A stretch of 64,000 bases of DNA from Procambarus clarkii. Its lineage: Eukaryota > Arthropoda > Malacostraca > Decapoda > Cambaridae. This document shows positions 6,251 to 63,199 of this stretch, one piece after another; the stretch's first letter is position 1; each line of letters starts with the position of its first letter. A model generated the notes under the pieces. It saw only the letters and a list, made by a program, of their open reading frames with translations, did not search any database and was not told the DNA's origin. Both the position numbers and the translations under genes were made by a program. The DNA is taken from positions 22,110,383 through 22,174,382 of the forward strand of contig NC_091220.1 of the NCBI RefSeq assembly GCF_040958095.1, in the 5' to 3' direction.

Positions 6251-7517
6251 TTAAAGGTCATTCTTACAATTAACTATAGTATTTGGAGGAGCCACTTTGC
6301 AATTTCCGAGAACACACCAGATTACATCAGACTTCTGAATTACAAAAACGTTTCCTCTGGGGAATAGCAAATGAATATATATGACAGGAAGGATTTTGAT
6401 ATTTCGAGTCAGTAACCCAAGACAGACATATGGGCTGAATAAGTATTGGTCATCATTATTTGATATTATATAACCATCAATTAGGTTATGACTGAATCTA
6501 TCAAATATCTGAGACTCATATACGAGACCAACTGGCTCATAACACTTTACATACTGTGGATACTTATTTATTTGCCCACTCCTCCTGCGAGTACAACTCC
6601 ATCTTTTCTTTAAGGCTCCCATGACATAAGTTTTTTCGTCCATATTCTGATTACTGGTTCCTAAAGCCATTACTCCTAAGGTTATAGGCTCTTTCAATAT
6701 TTCAGCCCTTTTATAACCAAGTTTGTATAATATCAGCAAAGGTACACAGAGACCAATGGGAATTTTCTTGCCTTGTAATTTACATTTTATAGTCCTCTTT
6801 GCAGTACCTTCCCTTTCATGTAATGTCGTTGAAGAAGCATTACAAAGGTCAGGTATTTTTAACCTCTCGAATATTGAAAGAAATGGAATATTATACTCAT
6901 CTTCATTAAACCACTCACAGATTTTTCGTTTCCTTTTAATTTCAAAACGGGGATGAATAAATGTCAACCTTAGATCTACTGGATACAATTTACAAACTTT
7001 TTGATCTGTTTTAAATGAAGGAAAAATTCCACATCTTTCGGCATCAGTATCCATAGTTTTTATTACTTCTTCATAAAATCTCCCAACAATATCGGAAAAG
7101 TTGGGAGGTTCTCCATTGTCGAGGGTACCATTTGCAACTGTGAACTTTGATGTAATTTGTTCTTTCCAGGTAATGTAGTTTTTAGGTAGCAATACTCGTA
7201 TTGACGGAGACTCAATGAAGTATATCAATACTGGTACATCTTCCGGATGTATTAATTCAGCGATTGCTATGAACCCTCTTTTTTTTGTTTTTTTCATTCT
7301 TTACAAGTGTATAACCTGAATATTCGATGGGAATGAATTTTGAAAGTTTATCAACAAGCCAGTCCTTCCCAATGAGGCAATATATTTTAATATCTTTATA
7401 ATTGTTCAACACGCCTAATGTAGCAGAGGCATATTCTCCACAAATGGCAGCTGATCCTCTTGCTTGACCAATTATGTAGCTGGCAAGTTTCATTTTAGGG
7501 GTATGGATTGAAATCAT
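6251..7517 (-). pseudogene. Unknown virus-like gene
   Basis: About 420 codons of AT-rich coding-type sequence on the minus strand with no introns and no family I recognise. The product would be soluble and basic, with scattered Cys and no signal peptide. The first part contains a hydrophobic, glycine-rich patch (SYIIGQARGSAAICGEYAS) near its start. It appears broken about once. It is the leftmost gene of the virus-like block and lies between two copies of a short dispersed repeat (5863 and 7831), which may bound a transposed segment. Placement with the fossil rests on base composition and lack of introns only. Confidence 0.4.
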
Positions 7518-7984
7518 AATTGTAATCTTACCTAATAAAAAATATCTATATCCTTTTATAATGAATAAATATAAAAAAAAAATCCACTACCTGTTAACAG
7601 GTAGAATTAGCTATGTTATCATCAGTGCCAACCAGGCAAAGGACAACACGAGATTGAACAAATGGGAAAAAGTTTATTTAACCCTGAATGCTCCACCTGG
7701 ACTTAATCGAGCCTTTATTATACTTTTAAAAACATTAAAATCGAGCCGGCAGAACATCAAAGCCCCCAAAACATAAACGTATATAATAAAAATTAATAAT
7801 TACTTGCTGTTTTCCGTTTTTGGGGTATACGGTTGGTTTGATTTAATAACACATCAATAAAGCCAACTATTCAAGGTTCGATTTGCATAATAAACAGGAG
7901 CAATATCCTCCCAAAATATATATATATATATAAAGAAGTGTGCGACCAAGAAAATCAAAGTCATTAATCCTATAAATTAAGGTA
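7518..7984. promoter_or_regulatory. Intergenic region with repeat copy and AT-rich leader
   Basis: No convincing gene. It holds the second copy of the GGTTGGTTTG block (7831-7861), then a block (7862-7895, ACTATTCAAG..TCGATTTGC.TAATAA) that recurs near 16514-16549. A (TA)n run ending in TATAAAG at about 7917-7934 and the sequence ATTAAGGTAATGG at the next start could be promoter elements. TTAAG resembles the late TAAG motif of baculoviruses, but only one other start here (61167) has it. Confidence 0.4.
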
Positions 7985-8584
7985 ATGGATTGGAATCAAT
8001 TATTATTATTATTATTAATATTGACCGTAAGAAAAATTACTACTGTTTGTTTTGCTCATTCTATAATTCCATGGGCTCCATTATCTATTAAAACTCCATA
8101 CATGACATTTATAAATGACCCATTCCATCCAACATGGCAAACAAGACATCAACAATCAAAAACAAAATTATTTAAAGAAATAGTAATGATCCCAACTGTT
8201 TATAATATTTCATTTTCAATAACATGTGGTGCATGTTATGCATACTCTTATTTCTTATATCCAAAATTAACTATAAATGAAGAAACAGAGGGACTCTTAT
8301 TATACGAAACTTTTCCAGATGCTAATAAATACTATATAGGATGTAAAATATATGAATGTAAAATGACCACGGTTAAGATTAAATTAAATAACCCTTTGGA
8401 AACATTAGAGGGAAGAATAATTTGTCATTTGAATCGTGGTATCCAACATACTAAAGAAATTCTACTCTTTAAAGGAATAAGTAGAGTACAAATACGTAAA
8501 GTAGAAAACAACCAGTGTGCACTTCCTATTAACTTAACATTGTTGAATTCTTTCATTTCAAGCCGAACGTTTAGTAAAAATTAA
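7985..8584 (+). CDS. Secreted or envelope-type protein, unknown (199 aa)
   Basis: A whole open frame of 199 codons. Residues 1-22 form a clear signal peptide (poly-Leu core, then TVCFA). The mature part has paired Cys (CGACYAYSYF, CKIYECKM) suggesting disulfides, one or more N-glycosylation sequons, and no second membrane span, so it is likely secreted or lumenal. No homologue is recognised. It lies in the virus-like block next to another signal-peptide protein on the opposite strand. The start is chosen because the signal peptide begins right at this ATG, 5 bases after a TTAAG motif. Confidence 0.5.
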   Translation: MDWNQLLLLLLILTVRKITTVCFAHSIIPWAPLSIKTPYMTFINDPFHPTWQTRHQQSKTKLFKEIVMIPTVYNISFSITCGACYAYSYFLYPKLTINEETEGLLLYETFPDANKYYIGCKIYECKMTTVKIKLNNPLETLEGRIICHLNRGIQHTKEILLFKGISRVQIRKVENNQCALPINLTLLNSFISSRTFSKN

Positions 8585-8877
8585 GATATTTGCTATATAT
8601 ATATCCGATAGTAAGTAGTACTAGATCGTTTCTTTTCCAAGAGGAAACACCGTTATTAGTATACCAGATTAACTATACACATCAATCAAATCATGTTGGA
8701 TTATCTCAAGAATTGTGTTTTAAATTCCAATGGTTGTTTGGGGTTTTGGGTTTGGCGCATTTTTTGATACATTAGACATTGATAAAGAAATAGTTTAAGT
8801 TTTTGATGGGATGTTGATGTTTATTAACACAAATTTATTTTAAAGTGGTTCGGGAAGTTCGTATGAAATATACTCTC
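8585..8877. other. Short AT-rich gap, possible decayed coding trace
   Basis: A 61-codon frame (8590-8775) without good start context follows the secreted-protein gene. It may be a decayed trace; nothing was recognised in it. Confidence 0.3.
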
Positions 8878-9840
8878 CTATTTCTTCCTGCCTTTTTTTT
8901 TTTTTTTACTTTTAACACATGTAATATAATATAATTGAATAATTAATAAACTTATTGAAACTATAATTATTATTATACTCAAAACAAACAAATATTGATG
9001 CATATAGGTAATAGCATGCGAATCAATACTTTTTTTACAATTACCAATACACTGTGCTATATAGAGTGTCCCATTTAAATCTTCTCGAAGAACTTTAAGT
9101 ATAGGACGAGTCTTATTATTATATGTTGTTATATTGTCAAGAATGCTATCTTGTTCATCCAATATTTTAATATTATTCTCATCGTACACAAATTTGATAA
9201 CAACAGACGACATTCTATTTAAGGTATCACACCTTTCTGATAATTTATTAACATTATTCACAACCTTTATTTGTGAATGACTGTGATCCAAACATAGTGT
9301 CTTTCTTTGACCATCTATTAAAAACTTAACATAGGTATCTGCTAAGGGCGTCAAAATAAGATATTCTTCTTCGTTACCTGAGGCATCAATTTGTAAATCA
9401 TATTTCATTGATGATGATAATTTTCTGTATGGCCAGCCTTGAGGGCAACCTAGAAGAATATTGATATAGCTAAATATTACAAATCTTCCTATTAATTTAC
9501 TTGTTGTGTTTTGATTCAGTCGTCTTTTCACTGGTAATTGAAATTTATTTAATATAAATAGTTGTGAAACATTCCCAAATTTTAACTCTGCATTTAACCA
9601 TTTATGTTGTTCTGTATTATTATATCCTAATAATTCATTAAAATTTCTATCGTAATAAATAGATATTATAAAATTGAGGTTATTTCTTACAAACCAAAAT
9701 TTAATTGAATCTTCAAATATTGTTAATCTTTTTCCATTTTCGTTGACTGCACATTCAGTATATAAATGGGGATTGTGACTAACTATTACTCGTACTGATA
9801 ACAAAACAAGAAGAAATGTCTTTCGTGAAATTGTATTCAT
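8878..9840 (-). CDS. Type I membrane glycoprotein, unknown (320 aa)
   Basis: A whole frame with an N-terminal signal peptide (FLLVLLSVRVIVS), an ectodomain of about 260 residues with several NxT/NxS sequons and spaced Cys (including CIGNCKK before the membrane), a single transmembrane segment near residues 283-308 (rich in Ile/Val/Leu) and a short, very basic cytoplasmic tail (KSKKKKKGRKK). This is the architecture of a viral envelope or host surface glycoprotein. I do not recognise the family. It is convergent with the 199-aa secreted protein gene, and its gene start faces the spliced gene at 10022. Confidence 0.5.
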   Translation of the reverse strand: MNTISRKTFLLVLLSVRVIVSHNPHLYTECAVNENGKRLTIFEDSIKFWFVRNNLNFIISIYYDRNFNELLGYNNTEQHKWLNAELKFGNVSQLFILNKFQLPVKRRLNQNTTSKLIGRFVIFSYINILLGCPQGWPYRKLSSSMKYDLQIDASGNEEEYLILTPLADTYVKFLIDGQRKTLCLDHSHSQIKVVNNVNKLSERCDTLNRMSSVVIKFVYDENNIKILDEQDSILDNITTYNNKTRPILKVLREDLNGTLYIAQCIGNCKKSIDSHAITYMHQYLFVLSIIIIIVSISLLIIQLYYITCVKSKKKKKGRKK

Positions 9841-9959
9841 TTTTTTAAAAGGTAAGAGTATTATTTCGATGTGTCAGGGTGGTGTTGTGCGTTCTAGTGG
9901 TCTCAACGGAGTTCCCCCACCCCCCTGCCTCCATCCGGGAGAGTCCCATCCTGTCAGGG

Positions 9960-9998: not shown

Positions 9999-10021
9999 GT
10001 GTCCCTGCTACACCCAACAGT

Positions 10022-11270: not shown

Positions 11271-11273
11271 TAA

Positions 11274-16890: not shown

Positions 16891-18546
<1,656 letters not shown>

Positions 18547-18564: not shown

Positions 18565-19662
18565 ATGAATAAAAAGGATAAACTTTCAATTAACATACAA
18601 ATCGAACATATAAATAATGAGAAGTTTAACATTAAAAAAAAACCTGGATTATATTATTTTCCCCTGAGATTTAATCTAACAAGACAATTATTTATAGCTG
18701 ATAAATTATATTATAAAAATAATATTGATGATTCTCATATTACTTTTACTTATCCTAACAATCTTAGCAGAAGTCAATTAATATATCATAAAATTTATGA
18801 CATATCAGGACTAACAGCTGATAATAAATTTGTCTGGTATGAAAGATTTTTCACGCAAATTCATAATCAAAATATTGTATATGAAGACGATGATCAGGAT
18901 TTTTCACTTTCAGTTTATTCTAGAACTCATTCCCCTTTTAAATTAGAAAAAACCAAAATGATACTTTTTATCAACGAGGTTGTGTATTTAATGTTGTTTC
19001 TTTTAGATGGGGTAAGAGATATTACCCAAAGTTTAAAACAAAGTTCATTAAGGGAGTATATTATTAATAATTGTATAAATTATCAAAAAGCATTAAAAGC
19101 AAATAAAAAAACTCTTAAAACTATTGATATGTACATTTGTATTGATGATGTAATTAAATATGATGAGCTTATCATTGATCATCTTATTAGATATTTTGAA
19201 AAAGATAAAAATTGGTCAGAAAGAAAACATATATCATTATCCACTGCATGGCATATGCATTGTGAGTTATTGCAAATATTTACTATGATTAAAGAAAATA
19301 AAAAGATTATATCAATACCAAGACTTGCAAAATTTAATTTACAACTTTTACCCGATTATCAAATAACTAAAGTGATAGCTTACCTTCCACAACAAACCTA
19401 CCATAAAAATATTTGGCACAATCAGTACAAAAATTATTATATTTATAATAATGGTATTATTATTAAAAAGAGGAAGGCGTTGGATGAGATGGAGGAGGGA
19501 GGTTTGGAGGATGTGGAGGATGAAGCGGATCAGGCGTTGGAAGATCAAGTGGATCAAGAGATGGAGGAGGTAGTGGAAGAGATTGATGATGATGGAGAGG
19601 AAGAGGAGGAATATATTTGTTCAACATACCATGGTGCACGGCTTCGGGCTGAGAGAATATGA
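18565..19662 (+). CDS. Unknown virus-like protein with acidic C-terminus (365 aa)
   Basis: A whole 365-codon frame beginning MNKKDKLSINIQIEHINN. The first 300 residues are mixed alpha/beta-looking, AT-biased and without a signal peptide; one hydrophobic helix (MILFINEVVYLMLFLLDGV, about 132-150) may be buried or membrane-associated. The tail is Glu/Asp-rich (EEVVEEIDDDGEEEEE). The gene is sandwiched between a GT satellite on its left and a CA satellite on its right. No family recognised. Confidence 0.5.
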   Translation: MNKKDKLSINIQIEHINNEKFNIKKKPGLYYFPLRFNLTRQLFIADKLYYKNNIDDSHITFTYPNNLSRSQLIYHKIYDISGLTADNKFVWYERFFTQIHNQNIVYEDDDQDFSLSVYSRTHSPFKLEKTKMILFINEVVYLMLFLLDGVRDITQSLKQSSLREYIINNCINYQKALKANKKTLKTIDMYICIDDVIKYDELIIDHLIRYFEKDKNWSERKHISLSTAWHMHCELLQIFTMIKENKKIISIPRLAKFNLQLLPDYQITKVIAYLPQQTYHKNIWHNQYKNYYIYNNGIIIKKRKALDEMEEGGLEDVEDEADQALEDQVDQEMEEVVEEIDDDGEEEEEYICSTYHGARLRAERI

Positions 19663-19691: not shown

Positions 19692-19729
19692 GAGTCTACC
19701 ACAAAGACACACACACACATACACATTCT

Positions 19730-19774
<45 letters not shown>

Positions 19775-20226
19775 TCTGACACACACACACACACACACAC
19801 ATTCTGACACACACACACACACATTCTGACACACACATTCTGACACACAAAACGCATTCTCACACAGGAAACACACACACACACATTCTGACACACAAAA
19901 CGCATTATCACACACACACACACACACACACACATTCTGACACACAAAACGCATTCTCACACAGGAATCACACACACACACACACACACACATTCTGACA
20001 CACATTCTGACACACAAAACGCATTCTCACACAGGAATCACACACACACACACACACACACACATATTCTGACACACAAAACGTATTCTCACACAGGAAT
20101 CACACACACACACACACACACACATATTCTGACACATAAAACGTATTCTCACACAGGAATCACACACACATTCTCACAAACACACACCAAAACACATATA
20201 CACACACACACTCATTCTTACACACA

Positions 20227-20260
<34 letters not shown>

Positions 20261-20312
20261 GACACACACACACACACACACACAAAGACACACGCACACA
20301 CACACACACACA
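19692..20312. repeat. (CA)n satellite with ACATTCTGACAC spacers
   Basis: CA runs alternate with the spacer words ACATTCTGACAC, AAAACGCATTCTCACACAGGAA and, at the right end, AAAGACAC. The right end is therefore the reverse-complement style of the GT satellite at 16.9-18.5 kb. Larger units of about 60 bases repeat at 19.93-20.17 kb. Confidence 0.93.
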
Positions 20313-20487
20313 CTAGTGAAAATCCTCTCGTTGCTCCGCCCACTTCACCCGTGATTGGTGCTCCATCAAGCCAATCACAGCAGACCGGCCGCACAGTTAC
20401 CACGACTCACATACCAAACACTTAATTGTTTTAAAACAGTAAAGTTAACTCTTTTTTAATACTTATTTAAAAGAGAAAGAATAGCTC

Positions 20488-21567
20488 ATGACAGAATTGA
20501 TGATAAAAGAAATTGACCATGGTCTTCAGCCTTTTATTCTCATCACCCAAAGATTGGTTGATGAAAATAAATCTTTTTTAAATACAAATAAGTATCTGAC
20601 AGATTTGACAGAAAACATTAAATTGTCAAATCTTCATCACCCAGCCAAATCTTTTATTAATTCTATCAATGAAAACCTAAATTTTAAATCCCAAAATGAT
20701 TTTAATAAAATTATGAAAAATATTTTGCATGGTGATGTAGAATCCCCTATTCTAAATATTATAGAAAACAAAGCTCTTAAACAACATATGTTAAAAAAAT
20801 ACCCATTTAAACTCTATGAAGAACACATTAACAATGTAAATAAACTTGCCCAAGATCTTGGGTTTGAAAACGAAACTCAATTTCTTGAATATTTAGAAAG
20901 TAATCCTTCACCAACTGATTCCAAATTAACTAAAATTTTTAACACTATGACCAAAAGGGCTGGTAAACATAAAAGTTTGATATTGAAATCTGCGATATTA
21001 TTAGGTGTAGGTGTTGCTTTTCTTGAATATTTGAACAAATACAATCGGAAGAACAGTGGTTGTTTTAGATACCATGTTGGAAAAGGACATTCCCTAAAAA
21101 AAGAAGTATATTTGACCAGATTTTGTAAATTCCCTATCAATCGGGTTGATTATATTAACTATGACATACTAAATGATAATACTCATCCATTGTTCAATAA
21201 AAAAGTCTGGAACTGTCAATTTGATATTCCAAATTCTGCAGAAACCCAAAACATATTAAATTTGGGCTGTAAGGGAATATGTTGTCCCCATAACTACAAT
21301 TATCTTTCACAATTTGTCCAGGGTTATGAACCTATTTCTAATTTAGAAAATAAAGAAATATTTTATATATATAAATGTGAACAGGGAACAATTTTAAGAA
21401 ATATTGCCGAAATTTTAGGAGATGGTATTGGTGAAGTGATTCAAGGCATTGGGCAATCTGATATATGGCAGTTTATATTGAAATCAATTAAAAATATTGG
21501 CTGGGTTATACTTTTAATTTTATTATTAATAATAATGTTAGGCCCATTGATAATGGTGATCAAATAG
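20488..21567 (+). CDS. PIF-5 (ODV-E56)-like envelope protein, whole frame
   Basis: 359 codons. The N-terminal half is helical; a hydrophobic, glycine-containing helix lies near residues 166-184 (LILKSAILLGVGVAFLEYL). A Cys-rich domain follows (GCFRYHVGKG, RFCKFP, VWNCQFDIP, GCKGICCPH, YKCEQGT), then a C-terminal transmembrane segment (WVILLILLLIIMLGPLIMVI). Internal hydrophobic helix, Cys domain and C-terminal anchor match the architecture of PIF-5/ODV-E56, an entry factor. The length also fits. The match is by layout, not by a diagnostic motif. It stands just upstream of P74 on the same strand, which supports a PIF role. It looks whole. Confidence 0.5.
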   Translation: MTELMIKEIDHGLQPFILITQRLVDENKSFLNTNKYLTDLTENIKLSNLHHPAKSFINSINENLNFKSQNDFNKIMKNILHGDVESPILNIIENKALKQHMLKKYPFKLYEEHINNVNKLAQDLGFENETQFLEYLESNPSPTDSKLTKIFNTMTKRAGKHKSLILKSAILLGVGVAFLEYLNKYNRKNSGCFRYHVGKGHSLKKEVYLTRFCKFPINRVDYINYDILNDNTHPLFNKKVWNCQFDIPNSAETQNILNLGCKGICCPHNYNYLSQFVQGYEPISNLENKEIFYIYKCEQGTILRNIAEILGDGIGEVIQGIGQSDIWQFILKSIKNIGWVILLILLLIIMLGPLIMVIK

Positions 21568-22386: not shown

Positions 22387-24421
22387 ATGAAAACTGTTAC
22401 TGTCTCTGATATTGCAATTGCAACTTACATAGTACATCGTATATCACAACGAAAAACAATGGAGATTCTTCAACAAAGAAATGGAAGTAAGTATTTTAAA
22501 AATATTATCATTAAGAATATACCATGGAAAAATATTCCTCCCAATTTCCCCAAAGCTTTCTTAGATGAAAATCCTAACGACTTTGAAGTTAAATTCACAA
22601 CGCTAGGTTGTAACATGCTAAAATGTTATTATGATGTAAAAACTGCTTGTCAGCCCGGATCTGGATCAGCAATTTTAATAAACGAACGTGAATATGCCTG
22701 TAGTGAAGCATGTTATGCTGTTCATAATGAGGTCCTTGAATTTCTTCAAGAAAGATTTGGTAATGATTTAAAATCTATTCTAAACAATACAGAAACAGAC
22801 AATCATTATTTCTCGAAACCTATTCCCGTTGAAACTTGGTCGATTAATGTCAAGGAATCTAACGAAAATTATTGTTCTGAACAGTTGTCTGCCCTTAAAA
22901 CATTGGCTCTAAGACCTTCAAGTCGATGGAGTCCTTCTAATGAAAACGAATTACAATCTTATCAAAAGAACCCCATTGCCTATGCCAAGAATACAAATAC
23001 ATATCAACTGAGAAAAGCTGTTGCTGGCTTAATCGATGCGCCACCATTGACATGGAATATTCAGCAACAGAATATAAACTTTAACTCAATCTATTGTAAA
23101 TTCTTTCATAAATACTATGATAGCCAGTCAGATCAATGCCATAGTCATGTCCAACGCCAGATATTAGGTTTTATATTTGGCAATCAAGTTATCAACCAAT
23201 TAACCGATGGTGAATTAGTGGACTTACTTAATCCAACAGCAGGAATGAGTATGATTCTTATGGATAAATTGAACAAACAAAATTATATGGATGTTGACAA
23301 AGGTTATATTGAAACAGTTGTTCCACAGTCAATACTCGAAAAAGAACAATTTGTTGACGAAGCGGATATAGTAGTATCCTCCGAAAATGTATCATTTATT
23401 GAACAGTATACTACTACTACTACTAATTTCATAGATGTTATAATAACACGTTTAGAATCTGAGTTTTCCGATTTATTATCATTAATAAAAGATGAGGCTA
23501 TTACTATAACCGAAATTGAAGTTACAACTCGAGTGCCTAAGATAATTTCAAGATTGTTAAAATATTTTTCCGAAAACATTCTCCATGATGCTCTTCAAGA
23601 ATTATTATCTGTAATTATGGTAGAAGCTTCATCTCAACAAATGATTATTCAACTTTTGGCGATGATCATTCGATCATCTATGGTTGAAATGAGCATTCAA
23701 TTTTCAATACGGCTTTTATCCGTTTTATCTTCGTCTTTATCCCTTGTTTTATCTGTGGGATTAGTGTTGTTACCATTAGAATTATATTTATCAATAGGTA
23801 ATATTGGTGGGTACAATAATGAAATAACTCATGCTGCATTAGAAAACCTTCGCCATAAAATAATTAATCAATTGTTAGAACAAGATATAAACTTTGGACA
23901 ATATATTAAATTGGGGCCTCCACAGTCTATAACCACACCACAAATAACACCAGATATGATATATTTATCTGCCATAAATGAAACAATACGCATTTATCCC
24001 CCAATGTATAAACATAATTGGTATGGATGGAACTACCACAAATTCTTTAGAAGAGAACAAGATGATTTTAAGCCTGCTTAGTCAGTTTGATGTAAACAGC
24101 CTTGGTCAAGCAATTACTCACAAGATTAATTCTAAAACCTATGATAGAGATTCTAAAGTGATAGATATCAGTAATTATATCATTAATGAAGCTAAATATA
24201 AACATTATCCCATTCAAACTGCAGATTTGGAATTACAAGAAGTAGAAAATTTAATTTCAAATTCTAAAAGGGATATATTAATTTTATGTTTAGCTTTGAT
24301 ATTTTTAATTGTCAGTCTGTTCCTCTTTCTCTTCAAGAAGCAACTTTATTCTTTTTATACACTAGGCATAAGTAATTGTTTATATATATATTGGTCTCTT
24401 TCTACAGCTTGGTTAAATTAA
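22387..24421 (+). pseudogene. pif-0: PIF-0 / P74 per os infectivity factor (fossil)
   Basis: A homologue of P74, the envelope protein that anchors the PIF complex. The N-terminus starts with a short helix (TVSDIAIATYIVHRI) followed by the family signatures FTTLGCNMLKCYYD, ALRPSSRWSPSNENE, FNSIYCKFFHKYYD and RQILGFIFGNQVINQL. The central part has long hydrophobic helices (about residues 395-480) as in P74, and a hydrophobic C-terminal anchor is encoded near the end. Total length, about 675 codons, is usual for the family. It is broken about once near its far end and is otherwise well kept. Downstream of the PIF-5-like gene on the same strand. Confidence 0.82.
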
Positions 24422-25110: not shown

Positions 25111-25718
25111 AGTAATGACATTTCTCATAAATATTGGTGTTGGCGTTATGGTGTGTTAACTCAATGGCTCCCTGAAGTCCATTGGGCCAAATATTATATA
25201 CGAGTATCGGATAAAATAATACTCGCCGGAGCTTCGAGACCTGAGCTCTTCGTCGCTGGCCACTAGATTGTCCTCAAAGAATAAAAAGGATGTGATAGCT
25301 CCTTACTCCCTCAGTCTACCTCGTAGTTCACGCCCAGTGACAACATGTGTTTAAATCCTTGAAGAAATCCATTCAGTATAGTGAGTGAAGTCGTATTCTC
25401 GTCGTTCCTTCTTAAGGGTTATAGTATTAATTTGTTTTTTTTTGTTTTTTTTGTGTGTGTGTAATTTTTGTAATTTTTGTGATGAATAATTGTCTAAAAT
25501 TGAATTTTATGGAATGCCTAGGGATGTAAAAATTACAATGTAAAATTTACCAGCAATGAATATTGTTTCTCAATGATCATAGGGTTCTTTTTTTTTTTTG
25601 TTTTTTTTTATAGTTTGGATGTTTATAGACTAATTTAATAATGGTCTGATTGTAACAACCTTTATCCCTAAAAAAATTTCAGGACCCCAGTACTAAGCGG
25701 CTCATCAATCATCTGAAC
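25111..25718. other. Non-coding, intron or intergenic
   Basis: T-rich runs and no open frame of note. It could be the intron between the Ser/Glu-rich exon and the C2H2 gene (TTTTCAG at about 25677-25682 is an acceptor candidate), but the phases I tested did not give a long continuous frame. Confidence 0.4.
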
Positions 25719-26814
25719 ATGGCGCATGTTGGACCTGACACACAGCCCTCTTCCAACCCAGACCAGAAAATCCCACCACAAAGAAACTGTCCCTCAGGCA
25801 GTTGTCTAGAGGCTGGGTTTGTGCCCGGGGCAGTGACAATGGACAACAGCAACCATCTCAACATAACATTTCTCAGTCCCAACATAGTCAAGGGCACATC
25901 AAAGATGTCGCTGGTGGATGCCATGAAGGCATGGACGATGGGGCAATGGGCGAGACGAAGGGACACAAAGTGTGTGAATGTGGCACTGTGGGGGGGAGGC
26001 TCTCGTCTCCTGGCGATGCCCACATCAACACACTCTTCAGTGGTTAGATGAACAATCCCATCAACAGCAACAAAAAATACAGCAACCACATCAAAAAAAT
26101 AACATTTTGGGGAGTAGGGATGATGAAAGAGATGCAGATTCTGCCCAGACCACTAGTAATGGAAAGAAGGTTCGTTCTCCACGTTTCAGTGACTATTGTG
26201 AGGGTCAGTCAGCTCCATCCAACACTCAGGCTAATCCCAAGGTTGTAAGCATTGACTCGTCGTTTTACCCGTCACTGAAGTTGGCACCCCCCGGTTTAGC
26301 CTACTGCCCTCCTCATAACAATGATAATGCAATGACAGCAGATGGAAATGAGGTTGATGATGTACAACCGATCGATCTCTCCCTTAAATCTAAACCATCT
26401 GCATTGCCAAAACTAACCTCTGTACAGTCAGCTCCATCCAACACTCAGGCTAATCCCAAGGTTGTAAGCATTGACTCGTCGTTTTACCAGTTCCTGAAGT
26501 TGGCACCCCCCGGTTTAGCCTACTACCCTCCTCTTAACAATGATCATGCAATGAGAGCAGATGGAAATGAGGTTGATGATGACGAACACAGATTCATATG
26601 TGATATTTGCCAAAAAGTATATAAGCGAAAAGAAGCCTTAACAGAATACCGTCGACTACATACAGGGGAGAAGCCTATTGAATGTGACAAGTGTTTCAAG
26701 AGGTTCTCTTACAGGGGTTCCCATTATAGACATAAACAGAAACACTGTCCAGTTTTGCACTATTTTACTTTCTTCAAGTTCATCCAGGAGTTCTCGTCTA
26801 ATGCGACTCACTAG
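25719..26814 (+). pseudogene. C2H2 zinc-finger gene with CtBP-type motif and internal duplication
   Basis: The 3' part encodes two C2H2 fingers (FICDICQKVYKRKEALTEYRRLH and IECDKCFKRFSYRGSHYRHKQKH) joined by the TGEKP linker, so it is a DNA-binding protein. Upstream there are two 155-bp direct repeats (26206-26360 and 26425-26579) encoding SAPSNTQANPKVVSIDSSFY, and between them PIDLSLKSKP, which fits the PxDLS motif that binds the corepressor CtBP. The first third (25719-26050) is open in other frames with sensible peptides, so the frame of the fingers does not run from a clear start; decay or a missed splice is possible. More GC-rich than the virus-like genes, hence likely host. Confidence 0.55.
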
Positions 26815-26821
26815 TTCCATT

Positions 26822-27056
26822 TCATATGTGTTCTAACAGTGCATCTGACACAATGTTGTTTTTGTTATCACGCAGCAGCTTTAGTCCCATCATATGATTA
26901 ATTTCATATATTCTATCTCGTTTAATTCTTTCAGCATGTTGAGAACTTTGGTAGTTATAGGACGCTTCATTTTGTATTTTTTCCAGTCTATCAATACTTT
27001 TGCCATTCTGCAGGACCAAAGCTGGTACATGATAGTCTATCAGAGACCTTTATACG
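26822..27056 (-). mobile_element. LINE reverse-transcriptase 3' fragment
   Basis: On the minus strand the sequence reads GLIDYHVPALVLQNGKS then DRLEKIQNEASYNYQ. The pattern (slIDYg.paL......kLekiQNealR) is that of the C-terminal region of non-LTR retrotransposon ORF2 proteins of Jockey/RTE type. Only this tail is present; the 5' side runs into the assembly gap. It ends at a TGA near 26822 with no obvious poly(A). Confidence 0.5.
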
Positions 27057-27556
27057 NNNNNNNNNNNNNNNNNNNNNNNNNNNNNNNNNNNNNNNNNNNN
27101 NNNNNNNNNNNNNNNNNNNNNNNNNNNNNNNNNNNNNNNNNNNNNNNNNNNNNNNNNNNNNNNNNNNNNNNNNNNNNNNNNNNNNNNNNNNNNNNNNNNN
27201 NNNNNNNNNNNNNNNNNNNNNNNNNNNNNNNNNNNNNNNNNNNNNNNNNNNNNNNNNNNNNNNNNNNNNNNNNNNNNNNNNNNNNNNNNNNNNNNNNNNN
27301 NNNNNNNNNNNNNNNNNNNNNNNNNNNNNNNNNNNNNNNNNNNNNNNNNNNNNNNNNNNNNNNNNNNNNNNNNNNNNNNNNNNNNNNNNNNNNNNNNNNN
27401 NNNNNNNNNNNNNNNNNNNNNNNNNNNNNNNNNNNNNNNNNNNNNNNNNNNNNNNNNNNNNNNNNNNNNNNNNNNNNNNNNNNNNNNNNNNNNNNNNNNN
27501 NNNNNNNNNNNNNNNNNNNNNNNNNNNNNNNNNNNNNNNNNNNNNNNNNNNNNNNN
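27057..27556. other. Assembly gap (500 N)
   Basis: Exactly 500 undetermined bases, the usual size of a scaffold gap of unknown length. It separates host-like sequence and a LINE tail from the DNA polymerase gene, so the true distance and linkage across it are unknown. Confidence 0.98.
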
Positions 27557-29886: not shown

Positions 29887-29887
29887 A

Positions 29888-42124: not shown

Positions 42125-42157
<33 letters not shown>

Positions 42158-56087: not shown

Positions 56088-57460
56088 TCATATTCTCATA
56101 TAAAAATGAACAGTAGACCTAATAAAAATGGGCACACTAGATGTTTGTACATGAATGTATTTTTCATTTAAAACACTTTTAATAACCATAGGAAAGTTGG
56201 AACCAAACATTATCACTAGTCGTCCTTTGAAACTTTTAAGTATACTATCGATAGTCATATAAAAATTCCGAATGGGTTCATTGATTATAAGTATATTGGC
56301 ATTTGAATATTCTTTATTAATACAAGTTTCTTTAACTATATGCCTAATATACCCGTTTGGTAACCATTTAACTGCAGTTATATACTCTAATCTTTCTGTG
56401 TTTTCTGTTGGAATAATGCTCACACCTCGATCCAGCAAAAAACTCTCAACCCATCCACCACGAGCATAAATAGACACCACAGTGTCCTTTGGGTTTATAA
56501 AACTCATTATTTCATCAAGTTCCTTCTTGGTAAGTATATGCTTTCCAAAAATAAAAATGTGCTCTTGCCAATAACAATCGTTAGCATGATTACAAATATT
56601 TTGAAGATGTTCTAATCTTATTTTTGATGCACAATTTAAGACAGTAGATTTCGGCTGGAAATAAGCAATCTCACCTTGCCAAGATAATCGTTCATCTTCA
56701 GAAAAGAAAGATGAACGTGGATAACCATCTATTGGTAGTTCAGGGTGGAATTGAGGTGAAAATTTATTATTTATATGATGTCCCCAGAATTGAATATGTG
56801 CAACTGAAAGATCTTGCAACAGAATGTGATCTAAATCAACTTCAATATTTACTAACTTAGGTAGAGAGGATTTCTTTTTCTTTGGGTGTATCATTAACAC
56901 TATTAAATGTAAAAATGCACCATAAAATAAATCTGTTTGGTTGCCTTCAGGAAATTCTTTGATTATTATGATATATGTACTGTAAAATAGAATAATTAAA
57001 TAAAATAAAGTTAATATAACCTGATAACAGTTCATATAAAAAAAAGGAGTAACATTAATCCCATACTTAAAACCATATAATAACCATGTACTCCATAGAT
57101 TAATTTCCACATAAAATAAGTAATCATTAAACATGCTACTAGAAATAAGACATTTGTGTCATCTATAGTACATATACCAATTCCTAAGCAGAAATATATA
57201 ACCATATATTGAACTTGCTTCCTGCAAACTTCTCTGTTTCTTTCACATATTAGGCAAAAAACAAGTGCAACAAAATTCACTTCTCTAAGCCCTGAATAAT
57301 ACCAAAAAAGACCACAAAGAACTGTCCACAGGTTAAATATGTGTGTACTATAAACATCATCTAAATACAGTTGAATTTCATATGAAAGTGGTTGCCAAAT
57401 GAAATCTTCTAACAGCAACATCATGATGATAATGATGATGATGATGATGATGGAAGCCAA
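56088..57460 (-). CDS. Multi-span membrane protein followed by methyltransferase-like domain
   Basis: The 5' part (57460-57032) encodes four or more hydrophobic helices. The 3' part (57134-56088) starts with two further spans (VILTLFYLIILFYSTYIII) and continues into a soluble domain of about 240 residues. This has DTVVSIYARGGWVESFLLDRGVSIIPTE, where the segment around IYARGGWVES looks like a Rossmann/SAM-binding loop followed by an acidic strand end. The fold call is inference. The two parts overlap in different frames: either two overlapping genes or one gene with about one break. In the virus-like block by composition. Confidence 0.4.
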
Positions 57461-57554
57461 TCAATAAGTCTATTCTTACTTAAACATCCTGTAGACAAAA
57501 GAAAAAAATATGATTTCGATTATTTCCACACCATACAACACACACATACATAAA

Positions 57555-57965
57555 TCAGCGATGTTTCTTATATTTATAGACTTCCCCATCTTTATATATA
57601 TGAAGATCAATAGTTCGAAGAATATCCCCTAAACAATCTAAATTGTTTTCAGATTTTGTTTTAGGAAGGCAGTTTAATCTTTTAAGATTTTGTTTGGGGA
57701 GAGAACAGAGAAGAATAGTCTCTAACCAATTTACACATTTAAATTTTTTCATAAGTAAATTATACAAATTATATATAACAATTCTTGTTACTTCATTTAC
57801 ATATTTTACAGTAGGTGATCGATAATATACATTACTTAAATTATCTTTTAGGTCATATATATCGGTATGAGACAGAAGAATGGGTTTAATACATCTTTCA
57901 TTCAATATAGGTTTTCTAATTAGAGAATAAGGTATTTTTCCTTGTATAGTCCAAATAGATTCCAT
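57555..57965 (-). CDS. Unknown virus-like protein (136 aa)
   Basis: A whole frame MESIWTIQGKIPYSLIRKP..., basic and Leu/Lys-rich, with Cys near residues 76, 87 and 99 and no membrane span. Lies upstream of and on the same strand as the membrane/methyltransferase-like gene. No family recognised. Confidence 0.4.
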   Translation of the reverse strand: MESIWTIQGKIPYSLIRKPILNERCIKPILLSHTDIYDLKDNLSNVYYRSPTVKYVNEVTRIVIYNLYNLLMKKFKCVNWLETILLCSLPKQNLKRLNCLPKTKSENNLDCLGDILRTIDLHIYKDGEVYKYKKHR

Positions 57966-58161
57966 AAGAGCCCATCCTTGATATCGTAACGTATTTTCTA
58001 AGAGAATAATGTATAATTTGATAATATGAATTCTTTTTAGGAGTTTGTATAAATAATAACTGAATTGTCTTCGAATAAAATCAAGAATAAATTCACATCA
58101 GTAATGATCCCATTTTCCATTTATTATTAAAAACCCAATATTTTGACATATATCTATATAT
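57966..58161. other. Short AT-rich intergenic
   Basis: Nothing recognised between divergent frames. Confidence 0.35.
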
Positions 58162-58350
58162 GTGTCAAACATAACTGATATAATATTATTAAATTCACTA
58201 TGTAACATATCAAACATTGGCAATAAATATGCTTTATATTATAATTATAAAGATTTGCCCGTTTTTTATACCTACCATCCCAGGTATACAATAATTACTA
58301 TCTCTATTATAATCTCATTTGTGTTATTATTATCTTTCTATAAAATATAG
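58162..58350 (+). CDS. Small C-terminally anchored protein (62 aa), tentative
   Basis: A 62-codon frame with a polar Asn/Tyr-rich head and a C-terminal membrane span (TIITISIIISFVLLLSFYKI). Tail-anchored mini-proteins are common in naldavirus envelopes, but a frame this short in AT-rich DNA may be chance. Confidence 0.3.
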   Translation: MSNITDIILLNSLCNISNIGNKYALYYNYKDLPVFYTYHPRYTIITISIIISFVLLLSFYKI

Positions 58351-58744
58351 TGAGACTAAGACGTGGAGGTGGGGGAGGGGGAGGGGGGTGCATCCAAGAA
58401 TCTCTCTATCAAGTCGATAATATGGCCAGATTGTTGACGTCCTTATTTTTGCAAGCGTCCATGAACACATCATCTTCTTCATCAGTGAAGTGTCGCCACT
58501 GTCATCCTTGACCCCGACTCAAAACTTAATTTAACCCCCCAAAAAATATAAAAATTGGTGTTCTATGATAATGTATAAACACTATAAACCTCATTGAGAT
58601 GGTAACTAAAATAGAAAGTTAGTTGGTATAGTTTAACAACCTGTTGTAACATATCTATATTTATAATATAATAATTAATATATGGTCAGTTTAAATTTGC
58701 ATTTTTTTATATAAAATAGTATGAAATAAAATATTAATATACAG
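58351..58744. repeat. Spacer holding a diverged copy of part of the neighbouring gene
   Basis: A piece at about 58540-58690 repeats, with changes, sequence from about 59110-59280 (AAAATATAAAA.TTGGTGTTCTATGA and AACATATCTATA). A G-run (58366-58388) and a GC-richer patch also lie here. No gene. Confidence 0.5.
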
Positions 58745-60697
58745 TTATTCCTCATCATTGATATTTGCACATTGAGCACATATTAAATCAAAACTATTAA
58801 AACGTGTAAATCTTACCGCTACCATATCACACCAATTGATTTTTTGTTTTAGAGCAAAATATTCATCCTTTAGAGATTTAGAACAATGAAGACAGTAGTG
58901 GCGTTCGCTTATATTAATTTCATTAAATGTCGCCAATTGTTGTCCAAGAATTGTATTAATATCTTTTTCAAATGAATTATTCAGTTCAATTTCCAATACA
59001 TCAAATTTTAAATTGTTAGTGATTGTTGCAATCATATGATGTTCACAAATTACATCTTTTCCTTTAAATAATCGAACTAATGAAAATGTTGGCATAGTTT
59101 GAATTGTTATTAACATATCTGTATAAATGATATAATAATTAAAACTTGGATGATATTCACCATTAAAGGTGCATTTTGTTTTTAACCAAAATATAAAATC
59201 TGGTGTTCTATGACAAGATAATGCATAGGCACTATAAATCTCACTGTAAGTTAACGGAGGTGGTAACCAACAATTGCATTCAACATCATATTCATGTCAG
59301 TCATATAAATTATATATAGAGAGAACATCATCTAGAAATCTTTGAAAAGTCCCATCTATTGTAATAACACAAAATTTTTCCATAGAAGAATTACAATAAT
59401 GGTCATAACAGTACATATATATACTTGAAATAGATGAACAAATAACTAAAACATTGTCTTCACAACTCCTTTCTTGCACCTGACACATTTCAGTATTTAC
59501 ATGAATTATAAAGTTACGTAGTCCCAAAATACAATACATAATAAAACATAAATCATGATTCCTCTTACTTACCATTAGTAGATGTACATTAATATTTAAA
59601 TTATAACAGGGTTTATTTTGTTCAGATAAAATGTTTCTAAATTTGATTACTGAAATTTCTTTCACTTTTTTTCTCCAGTCTTCCTCCCTATTAATATCAG
59701 AAGAATCTGGCATAAGCACCAATACATCAAAAGAAAAAGAAAAAGAATTAAACATAGAAAATGAACAAATAGCATTTTGCGGTAACTGTTGTACAAGTGG
59801 TGATTGTGGCTGCGATTCGATAATTAAAAATTGCAAAGATGAATGCCGCTTTACTATCTTCAAAACTATACTGACTATATCCACTCCAGGAACATAATCG
59901 ACACGTGTAATTTCACCTTTACTTGGAACATGATTGATTAGAAGGGCCTGTTCACAATAATATGTTTGTTCTGATGATTGAAGAATTATATTTTCGGTCA
60001 GATAGAGTGCAGAATGTACCTTATAATGATTAATATTAGATTGCTGTAAGTTTTGAAAAGAAAAAAGAAAAATAACTGTATATCCATAAAAAATATTCAG
60101 AACAGTTGACGTGGGATACATTCGAAGACAAATATTTAACAATTGTAAAATTTCATCTGTATCCCGAGAGAACATTGTCATAGCTGTCACTAAGGACCAC
60201 ACTTTGTTTTTGTTTATCATACCTTTTAAACGATGATTAACACTCGTCATTGTTTTTAATGTTGATGTAAACATAGGATGATCATTCAATAACTCAAATA
60301 GTTCAGAGTCTTTTTTTTCTTGACCCATTTTCGACCAGTTATTCATTTTAGTCTCGATCATCTTTAGAAGGCCTCTCATACAGTATCTTCCATCGGTTAT
60401 GTTGTATTTGATGTAACATAATTGTTCCACAATATAGGATGCATTGTAAAGAGACAAATTACCATCTTCATTGCTGTGTAGAAGTGGACTAGGGAAAAGA
60501 GTATATGAATACCATATTAATCGATGATAAAGAGTGCGGAATGGCATGTATGACGAGTCAAGAATAACATGGCTCCAAATTTTACAAACTCTGGAACAAA
60601 TAATTAAAAGATGACGATATGGAACCAGTGCAAATATGTTTTCTAATAACACCTGTGGTAGGGACGACATTTTTTGGATTACAGTTTGCATCAACAC
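58745..60697 (-). pseudogene. F-box protein with C-terminal zinc-ribbon-like end
   Basis: The N-terminus (from about 60664, MSSLPQVLLENIFALVPYRH) is an F-box: LLENIF..VPYRHLL..CSRVCKIWSHVI. F-boxes bind Skp1 and bring substrates to SCF ubiquitin ligases. The long middle (about 400 residues) is not recognised; it includes EQALLINHVPSKGEITRVDY. The 3' end has HYCLHCSKSLKDEY and DLICAQCAN, two CxxC pairs fitting a zinc ribbon. About 650 codons in all, intronless, AT-rich, with about one break. In a viral setting an F-box protein would redirect host ubiquitination; this role is inference. Confidence 0.55.
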
Positions 60698-60844
60698 CTG
60701 TTGTATTACAGTGTTCAGTAAGCAAAACAGTAAGTAATTTAAGTAGGGTAGTAGTAGTAGTAGTCTTTTTTTTTTAAATCAGGGACTCAAATCTCTTTTT
60801 TTTCAACTATCCATCAGGGTGTTTGTGACTGTTGTCACATCTGC

Positions 60845-61062
60845 ACACGTTCAATGTTGAATATACTATCCAATATCATTGGATACTAACCAGAAAACTA
60901 ATCAATATCGACATAGTATAGAGTATATAGTATAGTGCTGGATACTGGAAAACAATCCAACATTGAATGACTCATTCAACATTGAATTACTCATTCAATA
61001 TTGAATGATATTCCAATATTTAATATAATATCCAATATCACTTAATACTGGAAAACTACTCA
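60845..61062. promoter_or_regulatory. hr-like cluster of short palindromic repeats
   Basis: Many overlapping copies of (C)ATTCAA.ATTGAAT, TCCAATAT and GGATACTGGAAAAC occur within about 210 bases, in both orientations, next to a gene start. Clusters of imperfect palindromes of this type act as origins and enhancers (homologous regions) in baculoviruses and nimaviruses. The role here is inference; the repeats are visible. Confidence 0.45.
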
Positions 61063-61166
61063 ACAGGATAAAAACAATAACATATTTGACTTTGGTTGAA
61101 TAATTACTTTATTTTTAAAAATATCTGAATTAAAAATCATATAATTAAAAAAAGAGAAAATTAAGA

Positions 61167-63199
61167 ATGAGTAATCTACTGTCAATAATTATTATGTTAA
61201 TAATATTAATTATTTTCCTAACAGTTATAGTAGTCATTAATTCACGGAAAAAATTTAAAAATATTAAAAAATTATATAAAAAGGAAAACAATTACAATTC
61301 CATCAGCCATGAAACAACACCAGAGTCCATTGAGCTATCTCAACAATCTTCCCTCGGTCCAACAGAAGCTTCTAAAGTACCTCAAGAATCATTAACATCA
61401 GTCAGCAGAACATTAACAACTGAGGCCTCCGAACTGCCTCAAGAACCTCAAGAAACATCACAAACTGAGGCCCCCGATCTGCCTCAAGAAACATCACAAA
61501 CTGAGGCTTCTGAACCACCCCAAGAAACATTAAAATTGAAACCTCTGAACCACCCCAAGAAACATTAACAACTGAGGCCTCCAAACTGCCTCAAGAACCT
61601 CATTTAGAAACATCACAAACTGAGACCTCTGAAGAAACATTAACAACCGAGGCCTCTGAACTACCTCAAACAAGTGAAAATGAGTCCTCTGGCGTTCCTC
61701 ACGTCATCAGTCAAATGGAATCCGTCGAACAACCTCATGAATTACTTCAAGAATTATTACAATCCTCCATCTGTCAAGCAGATTTCTCTAAACTACCACA
61801 TGAAACAAAAGAATATGCCCAAGAAACAAAAGAATTCGTTTGTCAAACAGATTCGTCTGAACTTCGAAAATCCAAAATGAAATCCAAACTTATAGAATCA
61901 TTATTCTCGCCATTTATCGAAGACATAAAAACTTATAAAGGTCTCTTTATTGTTCCCAAACCACCAATTTCGTATAATCCTAAAACTATTACTGAAACTG
62001 ATAAGACACTAATTCAACCTTTTAATAAATTCCTTAGTTATTATGATGAAATCCACAAATACTTTACCAATGGTTATTCTGCATATTACATAAATAAACT
62101 ATATACAAATTCTAATATTGATAGGGGATATTATACAAAAAATCCAATTGTATTAATATTTCCATGGAATTTCCATAATTTCACACCTGATATTTATACA
62201 GATCGAAATGAAATAAAAGACGTCAAATTAAAGAACAATTTAGATGCATCACGTAAAAAATTTCGAAAGGAAGGAAAACTATTTTACATGAACAAATTGT
62301 TGATATCATGTACCCATGCTGCAAGTCAAGATATATTTAATTGTGGATTTTATTTGGACAGTTTCCCAATGAAAGAAAATTCACTACCCCCATTCGTGGT
62401 TATGAAACTTGAACTCGAAGACGGTCATAATGAGGTGGAATGTAAAATGTTAGCTAAGAATATTAATTCCTCAGACACATTTGCTAGCATTAAATTTAAC
62501 ATTTATGTGGAAGTCGAGAAAGAAGAACAAACAAAAGAATCACATGGAGGAGGAGAATTACAAAATGCAGGAGAAGGAGTAGGAAAGGTAAAAACTTCAC
62601 AAACAGTAGAAGGAGGAGGAGGAGGAGGAGAACCGCAAACAGTTGGAGGAGAAGGAGGAGGAGGAGAAGAACCACAAACAGTTGGAGGAGGAGGAGGAGG
62701 AGGAGGAGAAGAACCACAAACAGTTGGAGGAGAAGGAGGAGGAGGAGAAGAACCACAAACAGTTGAAGGAGAAGGAGGAGGAGGAGGAGAAGAACCACAA
62801 ACAGTTGGAGGAGGAGAAGAACCACAAACAGTTGGAGGAGAAGGAGGAGAAGAACCACAAACAGTTGGAGGAGAAGGAGGAGGAGGAGGAGGAGAAGAAC
62901 CACAAACAGTTGGAGGAGAAGGAGGAGGAGGAGGAGAAGAAGAACAAACAGTTGGAGGAGGAGGAGGAGAAGAACCACAAACAGTTGGAGGAGGAGAAGA
63001 ACCACAAACAGTTGGAGAAGGAGGAGGAGGAGGAGAAGAACCACAAACAGTTGGAGGAGGAGGAGGAGAAGAACCACAAACAGTTGGAGGAGAAGGAGGA
63101 GGAGGAGGAGGAGAAGAAGAACCACAAACAGTTGGAGGAGGAGGAGGAGGACCACAGCCCCACCGAAAAAAATATAAAAAAAAACTGGATTCGGTTTAA
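61167..63199 (+). pseudogene. N-anchored structural-type protein with Gln/Pro and Gly/Glu repeats
   Basis: Begins MSNLLSIIIMLIILIIFLTV, an N-terminal membrane anchor, then a basic patch and repeats of the type TEASELPQE(P)QETSQ (about 61400-61680). A folded domain of about 220 residues follows (KTYKGLFIVPKPPISYNP, PIVLIFPWNFHNF, LLISCTHAASQDIFNCGFY), likely beta-rich. A long GGGEEPQTVGG repeat completes it, ending in a basic tail (PHRKKYKKKLDSV). An N-terminal anchor plus beta domain is the plan of nimavirus envelope proteins, but no specific homologue is recognised. It has about one break. TTAAG lies just before the start. Confidence 0.45.
62605..63152. repeat. GGA/GAA minisatellite encoding Gly/Glu-PQTV units
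   Basis: About 17 units of CCACAAACAGTTGGAGGAG with variable runs of GGA. All three plus frames and minus frames stay open across it, so only the frame continuous with the folded domain upstream is meaningful. Confidence 0.92.

What the first reader, a model, noticed from the sequence alone, without database searches (positions are those of the whole stretch)
6251..63199. Large endogenous naldavirus (nimavirus-like) fossil in a decapod-type genome
PIF-0, PIF-2, PIF-3, a PIF-5-like protein, DNA polymerase B and a D5-like helicase-primase lie within one 57-kb stretch, interleaved with host-type DNA. Host mobile elements are inserted in and between the viral genes. The sequence divergence of the recognised proteins suggests a lineage distinct from described ones. 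It is the main candidate for something undescribed in this window.
Basis: partly seen in the sequence, partly recalled or inferred. Interest (0 to 1): 0.92.

Follow-up and report, generated by a model that had tools for sequence, protein, structure and literature searches.

The report
Giant viral jumping element in crayfish
A large DNA virus related to shrimp white-spot virus appears to have become a giant, many-copy mobile element in the genome of the red swamp crayfish; this stretch is one decayed copy, while many near-identical copies elsewhere point to recent spread.

Summary
The window lies in a 4.03-Gb genome that matches Procambarus clarkii by exact contig length. P74 (PIF-0) and DNA polymerase B are confirmed; PIF-3 scores just under Pfam's cut-off; PIF-5, PIF-2 and the D5-like helicase found no profile support. 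The block is longer than stated: an integrase (rve, intact DDE, 3519-5045) belongs to it, and homology continues past 64000.

The same genes recur genome-wide: at least 77 P74 and 85 integrase places, mostly at 93-99% identity. Twenty-eight best-scoring P74 copies differ by 0-3 of 1615 bases, so the family spread recently. P74 changes lean to silent sites (p 0.002).

The integrase groups with that of Hemigrapsus takanoi nimavirus, apart from other animals' KRBA2/Ginger2-type sequences. Best reading: a naldavirus-derived giant mobile element of the kind Kawato et al. described in crabs, but a distinct crayfish lineage (all but one outside P74 at 29-36%; polymerase frame typically about 1,220 aa against 2,351 in WSSV). 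The window copy is broken and apparently internally deleted. Termini, target site and family placement remain unproven.

The parts
3519..5045 (+). Ginger2/KRBA2-type DDE integrase (D252, D311, E349 of the ORF; HHCC-like zinc motif by eye)
   Evidence: Pfam rve 29.9 bits (cut-off 32.6); PFV integrase E 1.1e-13; DDE spacing 58/37; tree; 85 genome places (85 of 19326 candidates scored)
5026..5816 (+). two short ORFs behind the integrase, the second cysteine-rich; possibly the rest of the integrase gene
   Evidence: ORF list; no Pfam hit above cut-off for 5472-5816; inference
6251..9840 (.). three ORFs of unknown function (6251-7297 -, 7985-8584 +, 8878-9840 -)
   Evidence: ORF list; no Pfam hit above cut-off
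   Evidence: three of four pieces scanned, no Pfam hit above cut-off; one piece against the PDB, no useful hit
18565..19662 (+). 365-aa ORF, unknown
   Evidence: no Pfam hit
20488..21567 (+). PIF-5-like 359-aa ORF, open; relatives at 99, 62, 40 and 27%
   Evidence: no Pfam support
22387..24421 (+). P74 / PIF-0, frame broken near residue 539; 73 of 77 places (window included) have no stop in the matched stretch
25700..26814 (+). C2H2 zinc-finger ORF, part of the element
   Evidence: Pfam 21.6 bits, under cut-off 27; 40 genome places (40 of 1736 candidates scored)
26800..27000 (.). inferred deletion junction: zinc finger and polymerase lie 3 kb apart here, 65-81 kb in three other loci (C45, C71:24.0 Mb, C32)
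   Evidence: marker map; inference
27000..29364 (+). DNA polymerase B, C-terminal part, in broken frames
30174..32111 (+). Penelope-like retroelement between TA repeats (host insertion)
   Evidence: RVT_1 28.5 and GIY-YIG 17.6 bits, both under cut-off; TA repeats
34662..37352 (+). threonine-rich ORF with 129-bp repeats and a hydrophobic stretch near its end (by eye)
40491..44541 (-). helicase-like gene in at least six ORF pieces; the frame that holds its first 449 residues is 1395-1407 aa long in 39 of 94 listed places (3 of them with a stop inside the match)
   Evidence: counted by hand; motifs by eye; no meaningful Pfam hit
44617..45039 (-). PIF-3
   Evidence: Pfam 20.7 bits, cut-off 22.2
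45039..45791 (-). Fic/DOC protein
   Evidence: Pfam 37.7 bits
46157..48707 (+). low-complexity ORFs, the second cut by the LTR retrotransposon
48708..54053 (.). LTR retrotransposon (zinc-knuckle gag), host insertion, target duplication CAAAC at 48703-48707 and 54054-54058
56088..59116 (-). three ORFs of unknown function (56088-57134, 57555-57965, 58745-59116)
   Evidence: no Pfam hit above cut-off
59297..60697 (-). F-box protein of the element
   Evidence: Pfam 27 bits; 92 places (92 of 439 candidates scored)
61715..63199 (+). 494-aa ORF with a Gly/Glu-rich repeat tail
63414..64000 (-). S-adenosylmethionine synthetase-like gene, continuing past the window (window part recognised by eye; the one frame sent from it held stops)
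   Evidence: Pfam 139.5 and 128.5 bits on L054:3-677, which overlaps the window's last 83 bases; 40 of 177 candidates scored

Best explanation
The window holds one decayed copy of a family of giant mobile elements derived from a naldavirus (most likely a nimavirus-related lineage) in the red swamp crayfish Procambarus clarkii. The element carries virus genes (PIFs, polymerase, a helicase-like gene, ribonucleotide reductase) and a Ginger2-like DDE integrase. The proposed cycle: the virus DNA is copied by the element's own replication genes, the integrase joins it to host chromosomes in germ cells, copies are inherited, and particles with PIFs may allow oral passage between animals. Shown: gene content, high copy number, near identity of many copies, conserved order around the integrase, silent-site bias in P74, decay and host insertions in this copy, integrase kinship. 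Inferred: catalysis by the integrase, a linear substrate, particle formation, oral spread, target site.
For: At least 77 P74 and 85 integrase places. Of the 77 P74 places 33 have a listed integrase within 45 kb; in all 33 it lies upstream on the same strand, 18-40 kb away (23 have one only farther off, 21 none on the contig, in capped lists). 75 of 86 markers upstream of the anchors have the canonical orientation, nearly all 76-150 kb away. 28 P74 copies differ by 0-3 of 1615 bases, intergenic means 0.24-0.86%. P74 window lineage: 9 silent, 7 replacement changes, p 0.002. Integrase: catalytic triad, PFV integrase E 1.1e-13, one side of the tree with HtNMV integrase, support 99. Host retrotransposon with target duplication inside the copy.
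Against: No terminal inverted repeat or target duplication of the element was found; its ends lie outside what could be read. The published crab TIR core matches the window only at chance level. For the integrase core the silent-site bias is uneven: p below 0.05 in 9 of 19 (not independent) comparisons, and one copy shows 1 silent against 8 replacement changes. Only the best-scoring copies were scored, so copy statistics lean towards similar copies. PIF-2, PIF-5 and helicase rest on weak evidence. Eleven of 86 upstream and 13 of 37 downstream markers do not fit the canonical order, and 97 of 148 anchors had no other listed marker within 150 kb.
Confidence: 0.8

Rival explanations
1. An ancient endogenous virus was copied around the genome by segmental duplication and satellite or heterochromatin turnover; the integrase played no part in the recent spread.
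For: The window's flank holds a 252-bp satellite in two opposite arrays; several copies cluster on C71; pairs of inverted neighbours occur; the blocks at C71:21.96-21.99 Mb equal the window's F-box (over residues 1-426) and polymerase piece at 100% aa, which a local inverted duplication would explain. Host flanks of different copies were not compared at element ends.
Against: Listed markers fall in 228 clusters more than 300 kb apart on 129 contigs; integrase and P74 keep conserved order (33 of 33 near pairs) and mostly open frames; P74 looks constrained.
Confidence: 0.12
2. A narrower version of the best reading: the block is an ordinary member of Nimaviridae of the sesarmid/Hemigrapsus type (Whispovirus in the wide sense) with the same (AT/TA)n target, not a new lineage outside it.
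For: Integrase on one side of the tree with the HtNMV-type clade; decapod host; a (TA)52 array lies in the left flank; kindred crab elements of about 265-285 kb carry Ginger2-like integrases (PMC10871703, sections read).
Against: P74 open frame about 685 aa and polymerase typically about 1,220 aa (a few longer polymerase frames of 1,456-2,638 aa exist) against a 2,351-aa polymerase in WSSV; no named nimavirus P74 among 19 homologs (with a length limit that could hide long ones); G+C near 33% against 44% in the sesarmid genomes.
Confidence: 0.45
3. Exogenous virus or contamination assembled into a host contig.
For: Many copies are nearly identical.
Against: Host LTR retrotransposon with target duplication and a Penelope-like element inside the block; 228 marker clusters over 129 contigs, including 63 of C1-C95.
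Confidence: 0.02

Closest known systems
Hemigrapsus takanoi nimavirus and the sesarmid crab nimaviruses SiNMV and CdNMV (Kawato et al. 2023, PMC10871703)
   Same: Large endogenous virus in decapods, multi-copy, Ginger2-like integrase; the window integrase is 45% identical to HtNMV's over 65% of its length and falls on one side of the tree with it
   Different: Crayfish host not among theirs; lower G+C; polymerase frame about half of the 2,298-2,351 aa of Metopaulias and WSSV (no length for HtNMV or SiNMV was seen); TIR and AT/TA target not tested here; Fic, F-box and SAM-synthetase genes (not compared with theirs)
Majanivirus and Pemonivirus of penaeid shrimps (PMC10871703)
   Same: Endogenous and multi-copy (22-477 copies per haploid genome across the viruses of that paper)
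   Different: They carry tyrosine recombinases and insert in telomere repeats; here a DDE integrase
Clopovirus of terrestrial isopods (PMC10871703)
   Same: Divergent naldavirus relative in crustacean genomes, low G+C (31-35%)
   Different: Tyrosine recombinase and telomere motif; 416-579 kb; no sequence comparison made here
White spot syndrome virus
   Same: Naldavirus with PIF genes (table in PMC10271883, passages), DNA polymerase and ribonucleotide reductase
   Different: Free-living, no integrase; polymerase 2,351 aa, RR2 413 aa against a 295-aa ORF here
Teratorn of medaka (herpesvirus joined to a piggyBac transposon; make-up recalled, the name stands in PMC10871703)
   Same: Works like it: a large virus made mobile by a transposon enzyme
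   Different: Unrelated virus and enzyme

Membership tests
Naldaviricetes | p74 / pif-0 | tested here: met
   13 of 20 aligned sequences match PF04583, the window ORF itself not
Naldaviricetes | pif-3 | tested here: inconclusive
   20.7 bits against a cut-off of 22.2
Naldaviricetes | pif-1, pif-2, pif-5 | tested here: inconclusive
   No Pfam support for the candidate ORFs; pif-1 not identified; fold comparison not available
Naldaviricetes | family B DNA polymerase | tested here: met
   PF00136 40 bits, cut-off 23
Nimaviridae | clustering of the core genes (wsv514, wsv447, wsv026, wsv303 and others) with known nimaviruses | not testable with these tools
   No named nimavirus core proteins could be fetched; viral contigs gave no relative of P74 or the PIF-5-like ORF
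Nimaviridae | long DNA polymerase (2,351 aa in WSSV, 2,298 in Metopaulias) | tested here: not met
   18 listed copies with frames of 1,206-1,234 aa; four longer ones (1,456, 1,631, 2,099, 2,638) also exist; this size is a usual trait, not a formal criterion
Ginger2-type endogenous nimaviruses (sesarmid, HtNMV) | Ginger2-like DDE integrase | tested here: met
Ginger2-type endogenous nimaviruses (sesarmid, HtNMV) | 46-bp terminal inverted repeat and (AT/TA)n target | not tested
   Element ends not reached; a 12-base core of the published TIR has one match with one mismatch in the window, 1.31 expected by chance
Ginger2-type endogenous nimaviruses (sesarmid, HtNMV) | many copies in the host genome | tested here: met

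The most novel reading that the evidence does not exclude
A family-level new branch of naldaviruses, known so far only from crayfish, with a short polymerase and P74 and a gene block (SAM synthetase, F-box, helicase, polymerase) repeated in inverted orientation at both sides, which lives mainly as a giant transposable element and is still moving in present-day Procambarus clarkii.
Probability: 0.3. Interest if true: 0.82.

Novelty: new variant of a known kind. Interest (0 to 1): 0.62.

Why it matters
It extends integrase-bearing endogenous naldaviruses to freshwater crayfish in a laboratory and aquaculture species, and gives a test case, in an assembly with long contigs, for whether such viruses persist as genomic parasites: copies can be dated, their insertion sites compared between individuals, and expression in germ line checked. 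The integrase tree hints that Ginger2-type integrases form a virus-borne lineage rather than repeated captures from hosts. Some of these integrases are annotated as crayfish host genes (KRAB-A domain-containing protein 2-like), so gene sets may be polluted by virus.

Tried and rejected
Searching the own genome with Pfam PF04583 gave nothing, but its control did not ring either, so it says nothing. IMG/VR scans with P74 (one sequence, then the alignment) and the PIF-5-like alignment found no relative. PDB searches with P74, its alignment, the PIF-5-like alignment, a PIF-2 candidate and a helicase piece gave no useful match; PIF-3 matched mainly designed armadillo-repeat proteins, which I take to be chance likeness, rejected. 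Rfam: 0 matches. Aligning PIF-3 with the Fic ORF was pointless.

Long inverted repeats as the norm: in C45 the two arms of the helicase-like gene differ by 5 of 884 bases, no closer than each is to another locus (6 and 3), which speaks against recently equalised repeats there; the C71 blocks match the window's F-box and polymerase pieces at 100% aa, but the SAM-synthetase stretch there only at 97%, less than the 99% of a copy at C71:24.03 Mb; left open. Part of the polymerase gene is withheld too and was left alone.

Biases: genome searches score only the best candidates. Of the 30 P74 loci fetched, the window copy and L002 were set aside for the region means. In the marker map, rows that were second fragments of one copy and rows not printed were not entered (126 of 152 polymerase matches were).
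Full report
What was checked. The window is G000:C71:22110383-22174382 of a genome of 4,027,284,227 bases in 2308 contigs. Integrase homolog P0028, labelled Procambarus clarkii, lies on a record of 44,802,660 bases, exactly the length of contig C32 of this genome, so the host is almost certainly the red swamp crayfish (family Cambaridae). The P. clarkii assembly listed in PMC10454600 (passages) is 2,735 Mb, so this would have to be another assembly of the species (inference).

Genes. P74 at 22387-24421 is real: the search returned 19 homologs, one at 79% identity over 95% of the query and 18 at 29-36%; of the 20 aligned sequences 13 match Baculo_p74 and 6 Baculo_p74_N, the window's own ORF none. 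Polymerase B scores 40 bits (cut-off 23), PIF-3 20.7 (cut-off 22.2), Fic 37.7 and F-box 27 bits. The PIF-5-like ORF has four homologs, at 99, 62, 40 and 27%; the three that were scanned show no domain above a cut-off. The 62% relative sits in an assembly of the microsporidian Astathelohania contejeani, whose DNA was taken from infected Austropotamobius pallipes crayfish (PMC7849709, first of two parts read); it is probably crayfish-derived, which would put a relative in the family Astacidae (inference). The PIF-2 assignment has no support: three of its four ORF pieces were scanned and one compared with the PDB. The gene at 40491-44541 shows Walker A, Walker B and SF3-like motifs by eye (recalled), but no meaningful Pfam or PDB match.

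An ORF at 3519-5045 is a DDE integrase (Pfam rve 29.9 bits, just under its cut-off of 32.6; PFV integrase E 1.1e-13; catalytic residues D252, D311, E349). Of the 307 homologs found, 120 were listed; they include P. clarkii 'KRAB-A domain-containing protein 2-like' records and the 'integrase-like protein' of Hemigrapsus takanoi nimavirus. In a tree of 56 rows (window plus 55 of those 120), the window, five P. clarkii rows and one unnamed row form a group (98), and this group and the HtNMV group fall in a 22-row side of the tree (99), apart from 34 rows that hold all the other named records (quick search, midpoint root, so direction is not proven, and most rows of the 22 are unnamed).

Copy number and age. 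Own-genome searches gave 77 P74 places (77 of 2696 candidates scored), 85 integrase places (85 of 19326), 94 for the helicase-like ORF (94 of 188), 92 for the F-box gene (92 of 439), 152 matches for the polymerase piece (150 of 245 candidates scored), 40 candidates of 1736 for the zinc finger and 40 of 177 for the SAM-synthetase region. All are lower bounds. In P74, 73 of 77 places have no stop within the match. The 28 copies compared without gaps (beside the window copy) differ from each other by 0-3 of 1615 bases and from the window by 16-18. Over their whole 4.6-kb loci the 29 other copies differ by a median of 0.30%; among 28 of them intergenic means are 0.24, 0.50 and 0.86% in three stretches. 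These copies were the best-scoring ones, so they overstate similarity. At an assumed 3e-9 changes per site and year, half a percent is under one million years; the LTR pair inside the window copy (22 of 1008, K2P 0.022) would be near 3.7 million years. These dates are rough inference.

Selection. Between the window P74 and the 28 other copies, 27 comparisons give 8-9 silent and 7 replacement changes and one 9 and 8, over about 340 silent and 1277 replacement sites; the chance of 7 or fewer replacements among 16 without constraint is 0.002. The integrase core is less clear: p is below 0.05 in 9 of 19 comparisons, which are not independent, and L040 shows 1 silent and 8 replacement changes.

Layout. 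With M (SAM synthetase), F (F-box), O (helicase-like), D (polymerase), I (integrase), P (P74) and Z (zinc finger), many loci read M- F+ O+ D-, then some 76-150 kb, then I+ P+ Z+. Of the 77 P74 places, 33 have a listed integrase within 45 kb, in all 33 upstream on the same strand at 18-40 kb. Of 86 markers within 150 kb upstream of 148 anchors, 75 have the orientation given above; of 37 downstream, 24 have the mirror orientation D+ O- F- M+; 97 anchors had no listed marker on either side. Eight anchors had markers on both sides, six of them, the window included, with consistent orientation. The window reads I+ P+ Z+ D+ O- F- M+, collinear with that right side. From Z to D it has 3 kb, where C45, C71:24.0 Mb and C32 have 65-81 kb, C117 97-105 and C85:11.78 Mb 28, hence an inferred deletion. 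At C71:21.96-21.99 Mb, 119-154 kb left of the window, F-box (residues 1-426) and polymerase pieces match the window at 100% aa while other listed copies reach 98% at most; the SAM-synthetase stretch there is only 97% identical, less than the 99% of a copy at C71:24.03 Mb. In C45 the two arms are no closer than unrelated copies. Whether the element has true long inverted repeats or inverted neighbours is open. Homology continues past the window: for a 7.1-kb stretch that begins 0.5 kb after it, all 22 scored places (of 5487 candidates) start at its first base, and 13 of them, the window's own included, span all of it.

Decay in the window copy. P74, polymerase and helicase-like frames are broken; elsewhere the helicase-like frame is 1395-1407 aa long in 39 of 94 listed places, 3 of which hold a stop inside the match (counted by hand). 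An LTR retrotransposon sits at 48708-54053 with CAAAC on both sides, and a Penelope-like element at 30174-32111. That speaks strongly against contamination.

Comparison with the literature. Kawato et al. 2023 (PMC10871703; abstract, sections 5, 8, 9, 12, 15 and passages read) describe endogenous nimaviruses as giant mobile elements; two sesarmid crab viruses carry Ginger2-like integrases, a 46-bp TIR and insert in (AT/TA)n, and HtNMV has a similar integrase. The crayfish element works like these. It differs in polymerase frame (1,206-1,234 aa in 18 of the listed copies, four longer, counted by hand; WSSV 2,351 and Metopaulias 2,298, PMC4506587 section 20, part 1), in G+C and in host. Its P74 branch is long: path 2.7 or more to every row other than P0001 in a 20-row tree. 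No paper on an endogenous nimavirus of crayfish turned up in the open-access library with the searches (listings read; passages only of PMC10454600, PMC7016691, PMC10271883, PMC4506587, PMC4573495); a crayfish repeat survey lists 'integrated virus DNA' at 0.19% and Ginger2 at 0.02% in Pontastacus leptodactylus (PMC7859515, passages). Most subscription papers and bioRxiv are not covered.

Verdict. A decayed copy of a recently amplified, integrase-bearing naldavirus-derived element. Kind known, lineage and host new as far as could be searched; family placement, ends and movement unproven.

Noticed in passing
L054:1254-3839 (just right of the window): An 861-aa reverse transcriptase plus RNase H ORF (116.9 and 59.6 bits); its DNA is covered in all 22 scored places of that stretch (22 of 5487 candidates scored), so it was probably aboard before the copies spread.
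   Followed up: partly
L051:1230-2117: An open ribonucleotide reductase small-subunit ORF (390.5 bits) lies just upstream of the part matching the window in the C59 copy.
   Followed up: partly
L053:1-5315: Two opposite arrays of a 252-bp satellite followed by (TA)52 in the left flank of the window; TA runs are the target of the crab elements.
   Followed up: no
P0021: A protein labelled microsporidian (Astathelohania contejeani) is 62% identical to the PIF-5-like ORF; its assembly came from infected crayfish and this contig may be host-derived.
   Followed up: partly
P0025-P0028: Further P. clarkii integrases at 57-79% identity suggest additional related element lineages in the same genome.
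   Followed up: no
window 16891-18542 and 19707-20313: Long degenerate TG/AC arrays (1.65 and 0.6 kb) next to viral ORFs.
   Followed up: no
L061:434-1203, L062:643-1216: A GTGTGTGTAGCTA minisatellite about 5.4 kb after the start of P74 in two other copies, without a match in the window; followed in one by a 169-bp satellite.
   Followed up: no
C504:47957-62807: Three F-box genes in tandem, about 6.7 kb apart, in one contig.
   Followed up: no
window 1447-2600: Exon-like stretches with splice-like borders upstream of the integrase ORF, perhaps intron-bearing 5' exons of the integrase or a separate gene (read by eye).
   Followed up: no
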